Assembly: GCA_011391125.1 (NCBI GenBank)
Contig: JAABRE010000001.1
Coordinates: 1 to 64,000 of the forward strand
Length of the DNA: 64,000 nt
Direction: 5' to 3'
Origin: Synechococcales cyanobacterium S06
Lineage (GTDB): Bacteria; Cyanobacteriota; Cyanobacteriia; Cyanobacteriales; JAABRE01
Positions 23,980 through 37,598 of this stretch are shown here, piece after piece. The translations under genes were made by a program, and so were the position numbers. How positions within the stretch are numbered: position 1 is the first letter of the stretch; every line of letters starts with the position of its first letter. A model generated the notes under the pieces. The model was given only the letters and a program-made list of their open reading frames with translations, ran no database searches and had not been told where the DNA came from.

Positions 23980-25213
23980 TTAAATAATCACGAAATTACT
24001 ATTAGAAAGTGAAGGAGAATTATTAAAGATTGCAATCTGGATTTGAGCAGCGCTACCATTACCATCCGCATCGAAATATAACGCACCATCGCTATGATAA
24101 ATAAATCGGTGAGATGCACTACTAGCAACTGTTCCAACCCCACCACTTACAAATTGATTTTTTAACAATTTACCCGCTTTTAAACCACCTTGAAAACCAT
24201 TAGCTTTTATAGCAATTTTATCTTGATTAGCGTTAAAATCGGTGATTCTATCTATTCCTTGAGCTTTCGATTCAAACATAAATTGATCTGCTCCTGTTCC
24301 TCCTGTTAAGGTATCTTTTCCTAAACCACCGATTAAGGTATCGTTACCTTTTCCACCTAATAATTTATCGTTTCCTCCTTCACCTCTGAGGATATTATTA
24401 CCATTATTTCCTGTGATAATATTATTAAGAATATTACCAGTTCCTGTTAAGTCTTTTGTCCCAATTAATGTTAGTTTTTCGATGTTTGGATCGAGGGTAT
24501 AATTAAGGGAAGATTTAACTAAATCAGTGCCACTTTTTGCTCTTTCAATGATAATATCTTCCAATGAATCGATGCTATAAACATCGTTGCCCATACCACC
24601 GATCATGACATCTTTACCGAAACCACCATCCATGGTGTCATTGCCCATACCACCAATTAAAACGTCATCACCTGTACCACCTTTAAGTAGGTCGTTTCCG
24701 CCAGCACCAATGAGGTTATCATCCCCGTCTCCCCCGTTAAGGGTGTCCTTTTTGTCAGTACCCACGAGATTTTCATCAAGTGAACTGGGGCCTTCTGAAA
24801 CATCATTCAAGTTAACTGTGACTATACTTTCATCGAATAATCCCTCAGCATCAGTGGCTTTTATTGTTAAATCAAATTTGGGTGCGTTTTCAAAGTCGAG
24901 ATCATCTTGGTCATTAACGACAACTTGCCAAGCTCCGTTGCTGAATTGAACTTTGAAAGCGCTATTACCGTCACCGTCAACGTCAATATTTCCACCGATT
25001 AATTGAATATTAAGGGTATCGATCGCCTTATCATCGGTTATATTAACATTGCCAAGAAATGTACCGTTTGCTGAATTTTCGTCAATACTAACGATGCTAT
25101 CTGCAATAACAGGAGCAGTGTTAACAGGTTGCTCATTAACATCATTCAAGTTAACGGTGACTGTACTTTGAGAAGATTCGCCAATGGGATCAGTTACTGT
25201 CAGATTGAAGTTA
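23980..25213 (-). pseudogene. RTX/cadherin-domain adhesin, C-terminal part (gene split by MITE)
   Basis: The 3' part of a large secreted calcium-binding protein. It has a cadherin-like repeat (NTAPVIADSIVSIDENSANG, then VQFSNGAWQVVVNDQDDLDF), then a block of RTX nonapeptides (GGDGDDNLIGAGGNDLLKGG and GGMGNDTMDGGFGKDVMIGG), a second RTX block and a C-terminal type I secretion-like end (LYFDADGNGSAAQIQIAIF). Such proteins leave through a TolC-type exporter and bind Ca2+ outside. An open frame runs on upstream of the TTG at 25149 to the edge of the 124-bp MITE at 25214 (FNLTVTDPIGESSQSTVTVN), showing it was continuous with the fragment at 25300-26016. No promoter or ribosome site is visible for it alone. 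Confidence 0.8.
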
Positions 25214-25337
25214 TAGTAATTCCAAATAAAAATTAAACAAAAGTTTTTAGTTTGTTGTTGGACTTTAGTCCTAAGAAGCGCTAAAGCGCAACTACGAACC
25301 TATTTTTCAACTGTTTTAATCTTAATTGGAATCACTA
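25214..25337. mobile_element. 124-bp MITE, copy 1 (inside the adhesin gene)
   Basis: Ends TAGTAATTCCAA and TTGGAATCACTA form imperfect terminal repeats of about 25 bp. The element is flanked by TA (25212-25213 and 25338-25339), the IS630/Tc1-type target duplication. The core holds GGACTTTAGTCC and AGCGCTAAAGCGC. It is nearly identical to the copy at 32152-32275, and its ends match the surviving IS630 end at 461-472. It encodes nothing. Removing 124 bp plus one TA (126 bp) rejoins the adhesin frame. Confidence 0.9.
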
Positions 25338-26016
25338 TAAATTGGAGAGTAGTTTCAAAATCTAGTAAGTTGCCATTTGCAACCACTAAAGTCCATTGAT
25401 TGTTAATTAATTGAACGTCAAAAGTGTCACTCGTGTCTGTTACCCTCAAGGAGGCGATCGTATCGTCAGCGTCAGAAATGTTCAAAGTACCAACTACCGT
25501 ACCATTAGCAGTATTTTCATCAAGTGTGAAAATTTGATTTGCAAGCACAGGAATCTGATTAACCTCAGAAATTACCACATTTGTAGGAATATCAAGGGTA
25601 AATCCGTTTGCGCCATTACCAGTAAAATTAATTACGGTATTCAAATTATTCAGATCAACCCCATTTTGCACTTGAAATTTGATAGTGTATAAATCGACAT
25701 TAGTTGTACCAGGCCATGTTTGCCAAGAATCAGACCAAGCTGTGATAAATAGCTTATCTGTATTAGGATTTTGATCAAAATTGCTTTGATCATATCTGCT
25801 CAGATAGTCAATGTCATTAAGAGAATTAGGAAATGTCAAACTTCTATAATAAATGTCGGGAAGTTCCACCAATTTTAAAACAGTGGAATCAAAATAAAGA
25901 CCAACGCTTAAAGAGCCTACTGTAGAATCATCACTTTCATAGCTGACAGTAAACTGTAAAGTACCATCAGAGCTAACTTTCAGGGTTTCAGGGATAATGA
26001 TTTTTTGAATGGGCAT
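25300..26016 (-). pseudogene. RTX/cadherin-domain adhesin, N-terminal part (gene split by MITE)
   Basis: The first part of the same protein: a cohesin-like or big beta-sandwich start (IPETLKVSSDGTLQFTVSYE, GSLSVGLYFDSTVLKLVELP), no signal peptide (as expected for type I secretion), then a cadherin-like repeat beginning NQIPVLANQIFTLDENTANG and ending DFETTLQF. From there the frame enters the MITE and adds only IVIPIKIKTVEK before a stop. With the MITE and one TA removed, QF joins to NFNLTVTDPIG and the whole gene (26016 to 23980) would encode about 636 residues. The start ATG has an adequate ribosome site (AGGAGT), so a truncated, unsecretable product may still be made. Confidence 0.8.
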
Positions 26017-30461: not shown

Positions 30462-30781
30462 TATCGCATTTTCTGATTAAGTGTTATATACTCCCTCACC
30501 CCCCAACCCCCCAGGGCGTTTTCATTCTCGGAGGTGAAAACGGTGGGAATTAGGGTATTGGGGGATTGGGGGGATTTTTCACTCTCGGATTTTCAATCAT
30601 AATTAAAAGTCAGAAAATTCTCAATTTGTGGCTATAAATTATCAAAAAAGATTGATTATTCACTGTTTATTGTTCCTTGTTCAAAATAAAAAATTTAGAA
30701 TGAAAACACCCTGCCCAACCCCCCTCATCCCAAAGGGAGAGGGGGGGAAAAAAGGGCAAAATATCAACTAAAAATGCTATA
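30462..30781. mobile_element. TATAGC-family MITE, copy D, interrupted by a nested element
   Basis: Left part 30462-30511 (TATCGCATTTTCTGATTAAG) and right part 30714-30781 (CTCATCCCAAAGGGAGAGG, ending AAAAATGCTATA) form one about 108-bp copy once the 202-bp element and one 10-bp duplication are removed. Its last four bases TATA are shared with copy E. Confidence 0.8.
30512..30713. mobile_element. 202-bp nested element with 16-bp inverted ends and 10-bp target duplication
   Basis: Ends CAGGGCGTTTTCATTC (30512-30527) and GAATGAAAACACCCTG (30698-30713) are inverted repeats with one mismatch. CCCAACCCCC is present immediately on both sides (30502-30511 and 30714-30723). No reading frame is inside, so it is non-autonomous. 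The same right end stands alone at 195-210. A 10-bp duplication differs from the TA target of IS630-type elements, so a different transposase family moved it. Confidence 0.75.
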
Positions 30782-31732: not shown

Positions 31733-32125
31733 TTAATTTGATTCAAGAAATTGTTGAATTTGTAGAATAAAGAATGGATATTCATTTAAAGCTTTATTGA
31801 TGCAAATAAAAACAATATGTTGATCTATTTCTAAATATTGATGTACTAAAATATTTCTCATACTTGCTGATTTTGATAATTCAATCGCAAGATTCTTTTC
31901 AATAACACCAAATTCACCCATTTTTAAAAAAGATTCTTTATTTGTTTTAGCTTCAAAATTAAAACCTTTTGTTAAAATATGTTCATTAATATCAAGACTA
32001 CTTTGAATGATTAATTCTAATAATCTTTCGGTAATTAACTGTATTTGATAATATTGTAAATAACTCTCAAAATTTAATGATTCAAACTCTCGCAAATTTG
32101 TTAGTTTTTCAGTCATAAAATTCAA
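31733..32125 (-). pseudogene. HepT-type HEPN toxin, 5' end removed by MITE
   Basis: 130 codons of a DUF86/HepT HEPN RNase. The catalytic motif R-x4-H-x-Y is intact as RNILVHQY near the C-terminal third, and EKLTNLREFESLNFESYLQY is the usual first helix. The present frame begins only at an internal TTG (32125) or ATG (32116). Upstream codons DKLSILSRLNF run back to the edge of the 124-bp MITE (32152-32275). Without the MITE and one TA the frame starts ATG AAA TTA GAT, overlapping the preceding nucleotidyltransferase stop by ATGA. The toxin has therefore lost its start codon and translational coupling, although a truncated form may be made. Confidence 0.75.
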
Positions 32126-32151
32126 TCGACTTAAAATTGAAAGTTTATCTA

Positions 32152-32275
32152 TAGTAATTCCAAATAAAAATTAAACAAAAGTTTTTAGTTTGTTGTTGGA
32201 CTTTAGTCCTAAGAAGCGCTAAAGCGCAACTACGAACCTATTTTTCAACTGTTTTAATCTTAATTGGAATCAATA
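32152..32275. mobile_element. 124-bp MITE, copy 2 (inside the HepT start)
   Basis: Ends TAGTAATTCCAA and TTGGAATCAATA, flanked by TA at 32150-32151 and 32276-32277. The length is identical to copy 1 (25214-25337), with only a few base differences visible. It separates the start codon and second codon of the HepT gene from the rest. Confidence 0.9.
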
Positions 32276-32280
32276 TAATT

Positions 32281-32694
32281 TCATATAATTCCCCACTCAA
32301 TTAAAAAATTATTAATTTTGTCTTTAAATTGGTTTTCAATTATGGTTAGTTTTTGTTCACTCAAAATAGATTTTTGTTTAAAATTAGTAAACATTTCTTG
32401 TTCAGTTTCTAAAATGAGTTTACCATCTTTAGCAATATTATGAGCAAGTAAAAGAGAACAATTATTAAGAATAATGACATCAATATTGTCACTATTAATC
32501 TTTAATAAATCTCCTAAAATATTAGCTATTTCGATTTTGATAAAAATATTATTTTTGCTTAATTCTTGATCTAAGAAAACGGCAAAATCCCAATCACTTT
32601 GATTATGTACTTTATTTATTGCTCTTGAACCAAATAAAATCAGCATTTTTAAATAAGGCATTTTTTCTGATATTTTATCGCTTTCAAATTCCAT
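32281..32694 (-). CDS. MNT-type nucleotidyltransferase (MntA-like), gene 2
   Basis: A 137-residue minimal nucleotidyltransferase. The GSx10DxD site is seen as FGSRAINKVHNQSDWDFAVF (about residues 21-40). In HepT-MntA systems the MntA enzyme AMPylates the HEPN toxin's tyrosine and so acts as antitoxin. The stop (TGA at 32281-32283) lies 5 bp from the MITE, and the lost HepT start overlapped this stop. It begins 11 bp before the end of the upstream nucleotidyltransferase gene (32684), so the two are translationally coupled. The C-terminal Lys/Gln-rich helix (FKQKSILSEQKLTIIENQFK) is unlike typical MntA. Confidence 0.82.
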   Translation of the reverse strand: MEFESDKISEKMPYLKMLILFGSRAINKVHNQSDWDFAVFLDQELSKNNIFIKIEIANILGDLLKINSDNIDVIILNNCSLLLAHNIAKDGKLILETEQEMFTNFKQKSILSEQKLTIIENQFKDKINNFLIEWGII

Positions 32695-33043
32695 AAATCA
32701 CCTCTATTGTCTTTAAAATCTGACGTTTTCTAATCCAATTATGACTCGTTTCTACACTACTTTTAAAAACTAGATCAATATCTCTTTTTACTATTGTTTT
32801 TAACTCATCTTCTAACTTAAATAATTCAAACATTCCTATTTTTTTGTCAGGAGCAAAAGTTACTAAAAAATCTATGTCACTTTCAGAGTTAAAATCATCC
32901 CGTAAAATTGACCCAAATAAAGCTAATTCTGTGATGCTCCATTTTTGACAAAATTCATAAATTGTGCTTAAAGAAACTCCTAAACGATGTTCAATTTGTG
33001 TCAGATTTTTTGCCGGTTTTAAACTGAATAAATTTGGCTTCAT
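32684..33043 (-). CDS. MNT-type nucleotidyltransferase, gene 1
   Basis: A 119-residue minimal nucleotidyltransferase: LFGSILRDDFNSESDIDFLV (GSx10DxD, about residues 41-60) with a third acidic residue likely in VKRDIDLVF. The N-terminal 35 residues (NLTQIEHRLGVSLSTIYEFC) look like a small helix-turn-helix, suggesting a DNA-binding or regulatory start. It overlaps the second nucleotidyltransferase by 11 bp. Two MNT genes before one HepT gene is unusual; this one may be a regulator or a second AMPylase. It follows the ABC fusion gene by 67 bp on the same strand. Confidence 0.82.
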   Translation of the reverse strand: MKPNLFSLKPAKNLTQIEHRLGVSLSTIYEFCQKWSITELALFGSILRDDFNSESDIDFLVTFAPDKKIGMFELFKLEDELKTIVKRDIDLVFKSSVETSHNWIRKRQILKTIEVIYGI

Positions 33044-36885: not shown

Positions 36886-37221
36886 ATGGTTAATAGTAAT
36901 ATAATAACTCCAATAACAGATATTTTAGAGGAGTTTAAACAGCAGGTTAAAAACATTTATCGAGACGAATTGAGCCAATTAATATTATTTGGTTCTCAAG
37001 CAAGGGGAGAAGCTAAATCAGATTCTGATATTGATATTTTAATTGTGTTAAAAACAGGAAATAATCCTCAAGATAAATACCAACAAGTGATCAAAGTAAT
37101 ATCAGATTTATGTTTAGAATCTGAATTATTAATTAGTTGTGTTTATGTTAATCAATCTGAATTTGAGCGGGAAAAAAGTCCTTTATTATTAAATATCCAT
37201 CAAGAAGGAATAATTTTATGA
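36886..37221 (+). CDS. MNT-type nucleotidyltransferase
   Basis: A 111-residue minimal nucleotidyltransferase with site GSx10DxD (FGSQARGEAKSDSDIDILIV, about residues 34-53). It is the canonical domain with a short N-terminal helix (ITDILEEFKQQVKNIY). Its stop overlaps the start of the HEPN gene by 4 bp (ATGA), the standard arrangement of HEPN-MNT modules in which the MNT protein is the antitoxin. It has no close sequence similarity to the 32.3-33.0 kb pair beyond the motif. Confidence 0.88.
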   Translation: MVNSNIITPITDILEEFKQQVKNIYRDELSQLILFGSQARGEAKSDSDIDILIVLKTGNNPQDKYQQVIKVISDLCLESELLISCVYVNQSEFEREKSPLLLNIHQEGIIL

Positions 37222-37598
37222 ACGATGAACAAAAACAATTATTAGAAAAAGCAAGAGAAAGTCTTAAAGCAGCCAAAATTTTATTAGAGAATGAGTTACC
37301 AGATTTTGCGACCGCAAGAGCTTATTATACTATGTTTTATATTGCTCAAGCATTTTTATTAACAGAAAAGTTAACATTTTCTAGTCATGCTGCTGTTATT
37401 TCCGCTTTTGGTAGAGAATTTGTTAAAACTAAACGTATTCCTCAAGAATATCATCGTTATCTTATTGAAGCACAACAAAAACGCACCGAAGCTGACTACA
37501 AATTGATTCCGAATATTAGTTTTGAAGCGGCTCAAGCTATTATAAATAAAGCAGAAAATATGCTTATTTTTGCTGAGAATAATCTCGATAAATTCTAA
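37218..37598 (+). CDS. HEPN domain protein (MNT partner)
   Basis: A 126-residue all-helical HEPN protein: LLEKARESLKAAKILLENEL, then DFATARAYYTMFYIAQAFLL (the R-A-Y-Y segment of this subfamily), and SFEAAQAIINKAENMLIFAE. No R-x4-6-H-x-Y catalytic motif of HepT is visible, so it belongs to the other HEPN group often paired with MNT proteins, of uncertain catalytic activity. 4-bp overlap with the upstream gene. The trmJ-like gene follows about 60 bp later. Confidence 0.85.
   Translation: MNDEQKQLLEKARESLKAAKILLENELPDFATARAYYTMFYIAQAFLLTEKLTFSSHAAVISAFGREFVKTKRIPQEYHRYLIEAQQKRTEADYKLIPNISFEAAQAIINKAENMLIFAENNLDKF

What the first reader, a model, noticed from the sequence alone, without database searches (positions are those of the whole stretch)
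32116..32294. MITE insertion removed the start codon of a HepT toxin and broke an ATGA overlap with its antitoxin
Restoring the site (element and one TA removed) gives ATG AAA TTA GAT AAA CTT, which overlaps the upstream MNT stop by ATGA and continues in frame into DKLSILSRLNFMTEK. In the present sequence that ATG runs into a stop after four codons inside the MITE. The catalytic RNILVHQY motif is intact, so a MITE appears to have disarmed (or uncoupled) a HEPN toxin while leaving both nucleotidyltransferases. It shows how toxin-antitoxin operons can decay toxin-first.
Basis: partly seen in the sequence, partly recalled or inferred. Interest (0 to 1): 0.7.

Follow-up and report, generated by a model that had tools for sequence, protein, structure and literature searches.

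The report
Mobile element silences bacterial toxin gene
A short mobile DNA element sits between the start signal and the body of a bacterial self-poisoning gene, probably silencing it while its antidote gene stays intact, and copies of the same element have cut at least six other such poison genes in the genome.

Summary
On the minus strand a 128-bp MITE (TA copies included) lies at 32277-32150, between the ATGA that overlaps the MntA stop and the HepT body. Its core occurs 159 times in this genome, and an IS630 element has the same ends. The old ATG now reads four codons to a stop. Of 43 cyanobacterial HepT loci, 38 start with an ATGA overlap 3-4 codons before the residue that follows the MITE, so the internal Met is not the ancestral start. 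The ATG keeps a Shine-Dalgarno (-6.8 kcal/mol); TTG 32125 and ATG 32116 have none. Starting at 32116 removes half of helix 1. Silencing is inferred; no empty site was found.

Wider result: of 87 MITE copies with usable flanks, 7 cut a toxin gene whose antitoxin is open (HepT x3, HepT-like_2, YafQ, YoeB/RelE-like, TacT-like). Four lie in or at the end of antitoxin-side genes (two assigned by position only), all beside a toxin judged broken or absent. HepT: 3 of 11 hit, 0.15 expected; MNT 0 of 25. This supports toxin-first decay, though relaxed constraint explains part of it.

The parts
31733..32149 (-). HepT toxin body (HEPN RNase, DKLSILSRLNFM... to stop), open from the MITE edge; R-x4-H-x-Y intact
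   Evidence: PF01934 81.1 bits; NF047751 95.6 bits
32114..32116 (-). internal ATG (M12), possible fallback start without Shine-Dalgarno
32123..32125 (-). TTG (L9, nearly invariant leucine in relatives), possible fallback start without Shine-Dalgarno
32150..32277 (-). MITE including both TA copies; 127 of 128 bases equal to the consensus of 95 copies
32282..32284 (-). original HepT start ATG, overlapping the MntA stop as ATGA; now reads M-K-L-Y-stop
32281..32694 (-). MntA antitoxin (minimal nucleotidyltransferase), open, GSx10DxD present
   Evidence: NF047752 79.7 bits
32684..33043 (-). second MNT-like nucleotidyltransferase, overlapping the MntA start by 11 nt, open

Best explanation
A recently amplified IS630-type MITE inserted at a TA dinucleotide three codons into a HepT gene. 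Shown from sequence: the ATG and its Shine-Dalgarno stayed with the antitoxin side, the HepT body went to the other side, and the frame between them is closed by stops inside the MITE. Inferred: ribosomes ending MntA start at the old ATG, stop after four codons, and make little or no full-length HepT; any HepT made from TTG 32125 or ATG 32116 lacks about half of helix 1 and is poorly translated. The antitoxin and a second nucleotidyltransferase remain open. Among the copies examined, the same element has cut seven toxins beside open antitoxins, and antitoxin-side genes only where the toxin looks broken or absent, as expected if antitoxin loss before toxin loss is lethal.
For: Anatomy. MITE family and near-consensus copy. 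IS630 element with the same 12-bp ends (HTH_Tnp_IS630 136.9 bits, DDE_3 105.9 bits, in two frames). Ancestral layout: 39 of 43 cyanobacterial loci with ATGA overlap, 26-relative alignment, PDB hits 7ae2/7ae6/7ae8/7ae9. Helix 1 spans residues 2-22 of the 138-residue open frame, so a start at M12 drops about half of it. Shine-Dalgarno energies -6.8 at 32284 (and -5.3 at the MntA start) versus +0.1 at 32125 and 32116. Six more toxins cut: L146, L149, L207, L199 and L152, L198, with antitoxins over Pfam cut-offs. HepT 3 of 11 against 0.15 expected, Poisson P 0.0005; without the window copy 2 of 10, P 0.009. MNT 0 of 25; PIN domains 0 of 49.
Against: No expression or activity data. No empty site at DNA level. 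The second nucleotidyltransferase of this operon also lacks a Shine-Dalgarno (-0.4), so a start without one may be used here. The HepT body has no further lesion, but the insertion looks recent, so this says little. An intact R-x4-H motif is no proof of activity: in Legionella HEPN R98A and H103A had negligible effect on RNase activity (PMC11586414, passages). HepT against MNT alone is modest (Fisher P 0.023). In L149 the toxin frame stays open through the MITE; L146 has a second stop outside the MITE, and in L207 the His of the motif reads Ser by eye, so those toxins may have died first by other means. Two of the four antitoxin-side genes (L156, L175) matched no Pfam family; the BrnT piece in L156 is below cut-off. 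A TA share of the genome had to be assumed for the overall enrichment.
Confidence: 0.74

Rival explanations
1. Uncoupled, not silenced: HepT is still made from TTG 32125 or ATG 32116 as a protein lacking its first residues, at a level no longer tied to MntA translation.
For: The frame from 32149 to the stop is open and the catalytic motif intact. An ATG stands at the same place in 11 of 43 relatives, ungapped. The start of the second nucleotidyltransferase also has no Shine-Dalgarno (-0.4), and such starts are used in cyanobacteria (recalled).
Against: No Shine-Dalgarno at either start; about half of helix 1 lost with a start at 32116. In Legionella HEPN the dimer interface is mainly helices 1 and 2 and a loop, helix 2 giving the larger part (PMC11586414, passages). 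The MITE RNA folds into a long hairpin upstream (z -2.07).
Confidence: 0.17
2. The toxin hits reflect only relaxed constraint: TA genes are dispensable, so MITE copies persist there without any rule of order.
For: Other genes that look dispensable are hit too: DUF2887 in L209 (Pfam) and, by eye, a transposase in L182, an IscB-like gene in L013 and a Uma2-like gene in L171. Antitoxin-side genes are also hit (4 of 87).
Against: Where one partner is open and the other cut, the cut gene is the toxin in 7 of 7; with equal odds P is 0.008 and with toxins taking 60% of the length 0.028. The four antitoxin-side hits lie beside a broken or missing toxin, judged partly by eye. PIN toxins should be as dispensable, yet 0 of 49 PIN domains hold the MITE.
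Confidence: 0.4
3. Assembly artefact: two unrelated contig ends were wrongly joined at a MITE repeat.
For: The genome is a 168-contig draft and several contigs end in or next to MITE copies.
Against: The two flanks are natural neighbours (MntA and HepT, same strand, same phase) as in 39 of 43 relatives, and this copy carries a base difference seen in no other of 95.
Confidence: 0.02

Closest known systems
Type VII HepT/MntA (HEPN/MNT) toxin-antitoxin: PDB 7ae2, 7ae6, 7ae8, 7ae9 (organism, Aphanizomenon flos-aquae, recalled) and Shewanella oneidensis 5yep, 6m6u
   Same: HepT fold (TM-score by query 0.91-0.96 to 7ae entries), R-x4-H-x-Y, MntA family hit, antitoxin-first gene order with ATGA overlap
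   Different: here the toxin start is cut off by a MITE and a second nucleotidyltransferase precedes MntA
IS630-derived MITEs with TA target (target recalled); cyanobacterial MITEs such as Nezha and the MITE insertions in mcy genes of Anabaena (PMC10969869, passages)
   Same: short element, terminal inverted repeats shared with an IS630 element, high copy number, insertional inactivation of a gene
   Different: this family and its repeated hits on TA toxin genes were not described in the passages seen
Rickettsia palindromic elements (PMC10969869, passages)
   Same: in-frame insertion within reading frames, as in L149 (42 codons, open)
   Different: the consensus MITE has a stop in each of its six frames; L149 is the only TA case found that reads through

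Membership tests
Type VII HepT toxin | HepT family profile over its cut-off | tested here: met
   NF047751 95.6 bits (cut-off 60), PF01934 81.1 bits (cut-off 23.5)
Type VII HepT toxin | R-x4-6-H-x-Y motif | tested here: met
   RNILVHQY; R98, N99, L101, H103, Y105 invariant
Type VII HepT toxin | full-length reading frame from its start codon | tested here: not met
   stop after four codons: a broken member, not shown to be an active one
Type VII HepT toxin | RNase activity and growth arrest, neutralised by AMPylation of the Tyr | not testable with these tools
   -
MntA antitoxin | MntA profile and GSx10DxD | tested here: met
   NF047752 79.7 bits (cut-off 60); motif. The second nucleotidyltransferase is below this cut-off (43.5 bits)
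IS630-derived MITE | terminal inverted repeats shared with an IS630 transposase element | tested here: met
   TATAGTRATTCC ends on both sides of the element in L139 with HTH_Tnp_IS630 and DDE_3
IS630-derived MITE | TA target duplication | tested here: inconclusive
   TATA at both ends in 31 of 31 rows, and the MntA/HepT phase fits one TA; no empty site seen
IS630-derived MITE | high copy number, short fixed length, no transposase | tested here: met
   159 core matches; 95 of 95 complete copies with an exact core are 128 bp

The most novel reading that the evidence does not exclude
In this genome a MITE burst acts as a natural transposon mutagenesis that has been selected to disarm toxin-antitoxin modules: repeated, independent toxin knock-outs freed the lineage from addiction, antitoxin loss follows only afterwards, and in one case (L149) the element is kept in frame inside the HepT catalytic motif as an inert partner for its antitoxin.
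Probability: 0.22. Interest if true: 0.8.

Novelty: new variant of a known kind. Interest (0 to 1): 0.6.

Why it matters
Whether chromosomal toxin-antitoxin modules are truly addictive, and in what order they die, is usually argued from single loci (my view of the field, recalled). Here one MITE family gives ten or eleven lesions in TA modules of one genome, and none that I found pairs an intact toxin with a cut antitoxin. The same count can be made in any MITE-rich genome, which turns toxin-first decay into a testable rule.

Tried and rejected
Empty site: not found. In 387 other genomes of the order the best listed MITE match covers 61 of 128 bases at 83%, but only two candidates per genome were scored there, so longer matches may have been missed. 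Rfam: no match. PADLOC: no HepT hit. Promoter scan: no excess over shuffles (11 found, 10.0 expected), so a MITE promoter is not supported. Selection on the opened MITE frame in L149 was considered and not taken as evidence: the A39C change is shared by 3 of 95 copies. The 18-of-87 open-frame test misses hits near gene ends or with further stops (ours, L146, L152, L198, L189); these came from family searches, so the TA count is a minimum and was not made blind. Pfam named neither piece of the cut genes in L156 and L175, and neither Pfam nor NCBIfam named the acetyltransferase pieces of L198 that were scanned; that one rests on phmmer to solved acetyltransferases (6g96 at 6.5e-21, KacT 5zgn at 3e-12; the name TacT is recalled) and on its TacA1 neighbour.

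Rows dropped: L060, L076 and L108 were left out of alignment A2 because their HepT frames hold stops, and L033 because it repeats L063. The 37 non-cyanobacterial loci are not in the count of 43; in them the overlap varies. L037, the sixth relative, was not read. C111:38012 was left out of the MNT count of 25 as a weak match (23.3 bits) beside a RelE-type frame (by eye). Of 102 exact cores seen in fetched loci, 7 were incomplete or at an edge and 8 of the 95 complete ones had under 300 nt on one side; about 57 of the 159 places were not examined.

Full report
What is there. On the minus strand the order is a nucleotidyltransferase (33043-32684), MntA (32694-32281), a 128-bp repeat (32277-32150) and a HepT body (32149-31733). 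Pfam and NCBIfam place the three coding parts as MNT-like, MntA (79.7 bits, cut-off 60) and HepT (95.6 bits, cut-off 60). The ATG at 32284 overlaps the MntA stop as ATGA and today reads M-K-L-Y-stop; the HepT frame upstream of 32149 is closed by TGA, TAG and TAA inside the repeat. The distance from 32284 to 32149 is 135 nt, that is three codons plus a net insertion of 126 nt, which keeps phase.

The repeat is a MITE. A search of the own genome scored 40 candidates and returned 43 matches, 40 of them over the full 128 bases at 99-100%; a 41-nt core search found 159 places, with 0 for the reversed control. In the first 30 loci, 31 of 31 aligned rows show TATA at both ends with unrelated flanks. 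From 95 complete copies with an exact core a consensus was made: all are 128 bp, 39 are identical to it, and ours differs at one base found in no other copy. The 12-bp end occurs 297 times. Two such ends flank a 950-bp element (in L139) whose two frames match HTH_Tnp_IS630 and DDE_3: a likely IS630 parent; whether it is active is unknown. In 387 other genomes of the order only parts of the element were listed, with two candidates scored per genome.

The ancestral start. Among 59 other genomes, six have a HepT match; five were read, and four overlap the upstream MNT by ATGA; the fifth overlaps by 13 nt from its GTG, or by ATGA from its ATG. A genome scan gave 80 loci. Of the 43 cyanobacterial ones, 39 have ATGA with an upstream frame of at least 80 codons; the ATG is four codons before the position of D1 in 36, three in 2 (the two best matches, L050 and L051), and 2 codons after it in 1; 4 of 43 did not pass (L072, L102, L105, L114). 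In the other 37 loci overlaps vary. The alignment with 26 relatives keeps the N-terminal pattern, and L9, the TTG codon at 32125, is nearly invariant. A model of the open frame has mean pLDDT 93.6 and helix 1 at residues 2-22; it matches the 7ae HEPN toxins at TM-score 0.91-0.96 over 133-137 columns.

What it does. Shown: start and Shine-Dalgarno are separated from the body, with duplex energy -6.8 kcal/mol at 32284 against +0.1 at 32125 and 32116; MntA's own start gives -5.3, but the second nucleotidyltransferase only -0.4, so a weak site does not exclude translation (the anti-Shine-Dalgarno is recalled). By folding, the MITE RNA pairs end to end (-38.6 kcal/mol, z -2.07). Inferred: HepT is silenced or made weakly as a protein without about half of helix 1. 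In Legionella HEPN the dimer interface is mainly helices 1 and 2 and a loop, helix 2 giving the larger part (PMC11586414, passages), so such a protein is likely impaired. This is not proven. The same paper found little effect of R98A and H103A on RNase activity there, so the intact R-x4-H motif does not by itself show an active enzyme.

The wider pattern. The own genome holds 11 HepT genes (12 hits, one gene split), each with an MNT hit directly upstream. Three carry the MITE: ours; L146, where it splits the middle of HepT, which also has a stop outside the MITE; and L149, where it splits the catalytic motif but the frame stays open over 42 extra codons. A fourth HEPN toxin, HepT-like_2 in L207, is cut as well (86.9 bits for the right-hand piece); by eye the His of its motif reads Ser. 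The size of that family in the genome was not searched. I then collected MITE copies from the site list: 95 complete, 87 with at least 300 nt on both sides. Three more toxins are cut: YafQ in L199, a YoeB/RelE-like toxin in L152 that loses only its last residues, and a TacT-like acetyltransferase in L198, named by phmmer alone. The antitoxins of all seven are open and above Pfam cut-offs: MNT in four loci, RelB, PhdYefM (31.5 against 29.8) and TacA1; in NCBIfam the partners in L152, L198 and L207 stay below cut-off.

Antitoxin-side hits and controls. Four of the 87 lie in or at the end of antitoxin-side genes: YefM-like in L010 with no toxin-like frame of 45 aa or more beside it, by eye; a gene beside a BrnT-like toxin in two pieces in L156; a gene beside a VapC broken by another repeat in L175; and in L189 the end, or just past the end, of a YefM-like gene that has a stop, beside a YoeB-like toxin with two stops. 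L156 and L175 are assigned by position only. So 10 or 11 of 87 copies lie in TA genes, 7 in toxins, and no case found pairs a cut antitoxin with an intact toxin. Controls: MNT genes 0 of 25, all scanned. PIN domains over the cut-off 0 of 49, all scanned with their surroundings; some have a MITE within a few hundred bases.

Numbers. HepT: 0.15 hits expected, 3 seen, P 0.0005; leaving out the window copy that started this, 2 of 10, P 0.009. HepT against MNT: Fisher P 0.023; against PIN 0.0048, or 0.026 without the window copy. For all TA genes an assumed 100-200 pairs per genome gives 1.1-2.3 expected of 87 against 11 counted; the TA number is an assumption, and the classification was not blind. 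Seven toxins of seven, at equal odds, has P 0.008.

Reading. The simplest account has two parts: TA genes tolerate insertions, and lineages with an antitoxin cut before its toxin do not survive. Positive selection for disarming toxins is possible but not shown. In the literature searched (nine searches) I saw listings and abstracts, and in passages MITE inactivation of genes and in-frame elements (PMC10969869) and general TA genomics (PMC2701414), but no report of MITE hits ordered by toxin and antitoxin; most subscription papers are not held.

Noticed in passing
window 25212-25339: A second full MITE copy, identical to the consensus, lies inside a long cadherin/RTX-like frame (by eye) open on both flanks (235 and 409 codons).
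   Followed up: partly
window 36886-37598: An intact MNT-HEPN (PF05168) pair with a 4-nt overlap (37218-37221), 4 kb from the broken module.
   Followed up: partly
L149:754-1248 (G000:C117): HepT with the MITE translated in frame within the catalytic motif; the MITE stop TAG is TCG here, a change shared by 3 of 95 copies.
   Followed up: partly
L152:81-236 (G000:C10): A RelE/HigB-like toxin fragment (TIGR02683 29 bits, below cut-off) runs into another MITE-type end near the contig edge; its partner was not seen.
   Followed up: no
L153, L177 (G000:C10, C92): The MITE also lies within long frames resembling an Hsp70 and a nitric oxide synthase oxygenase domain (judged by eye).
   Followed up: no
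L060, L076, L108: HepT frames with internal stops in other genomes, while the upstream frame ends normally as ATGA at the HepT start in all three.
   Followed up: no
G000: C10, C97, C2, C124 (two), C83, and window 32684-33043: Seven of 25 MNT genes without an evident HEPN neighbour of their own (by eye from ORFs of 75 aa or more), while all 11 HepT genes have an MNT.
   Followed up: partly
window 30628-30771 and L175:1221-1332: Another repeat, translating as PLIPKGEG or PPSSQRERGKR, interrupts (by eye) the VapC next to the MITE-cut gene in L175.
   Followed up: no
L228, L255 (G000:C100, C99): MITE copies lie about 300 nt upstream of two PIN domains, before the place expected for their antitoxin genes.
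   Followed up: no
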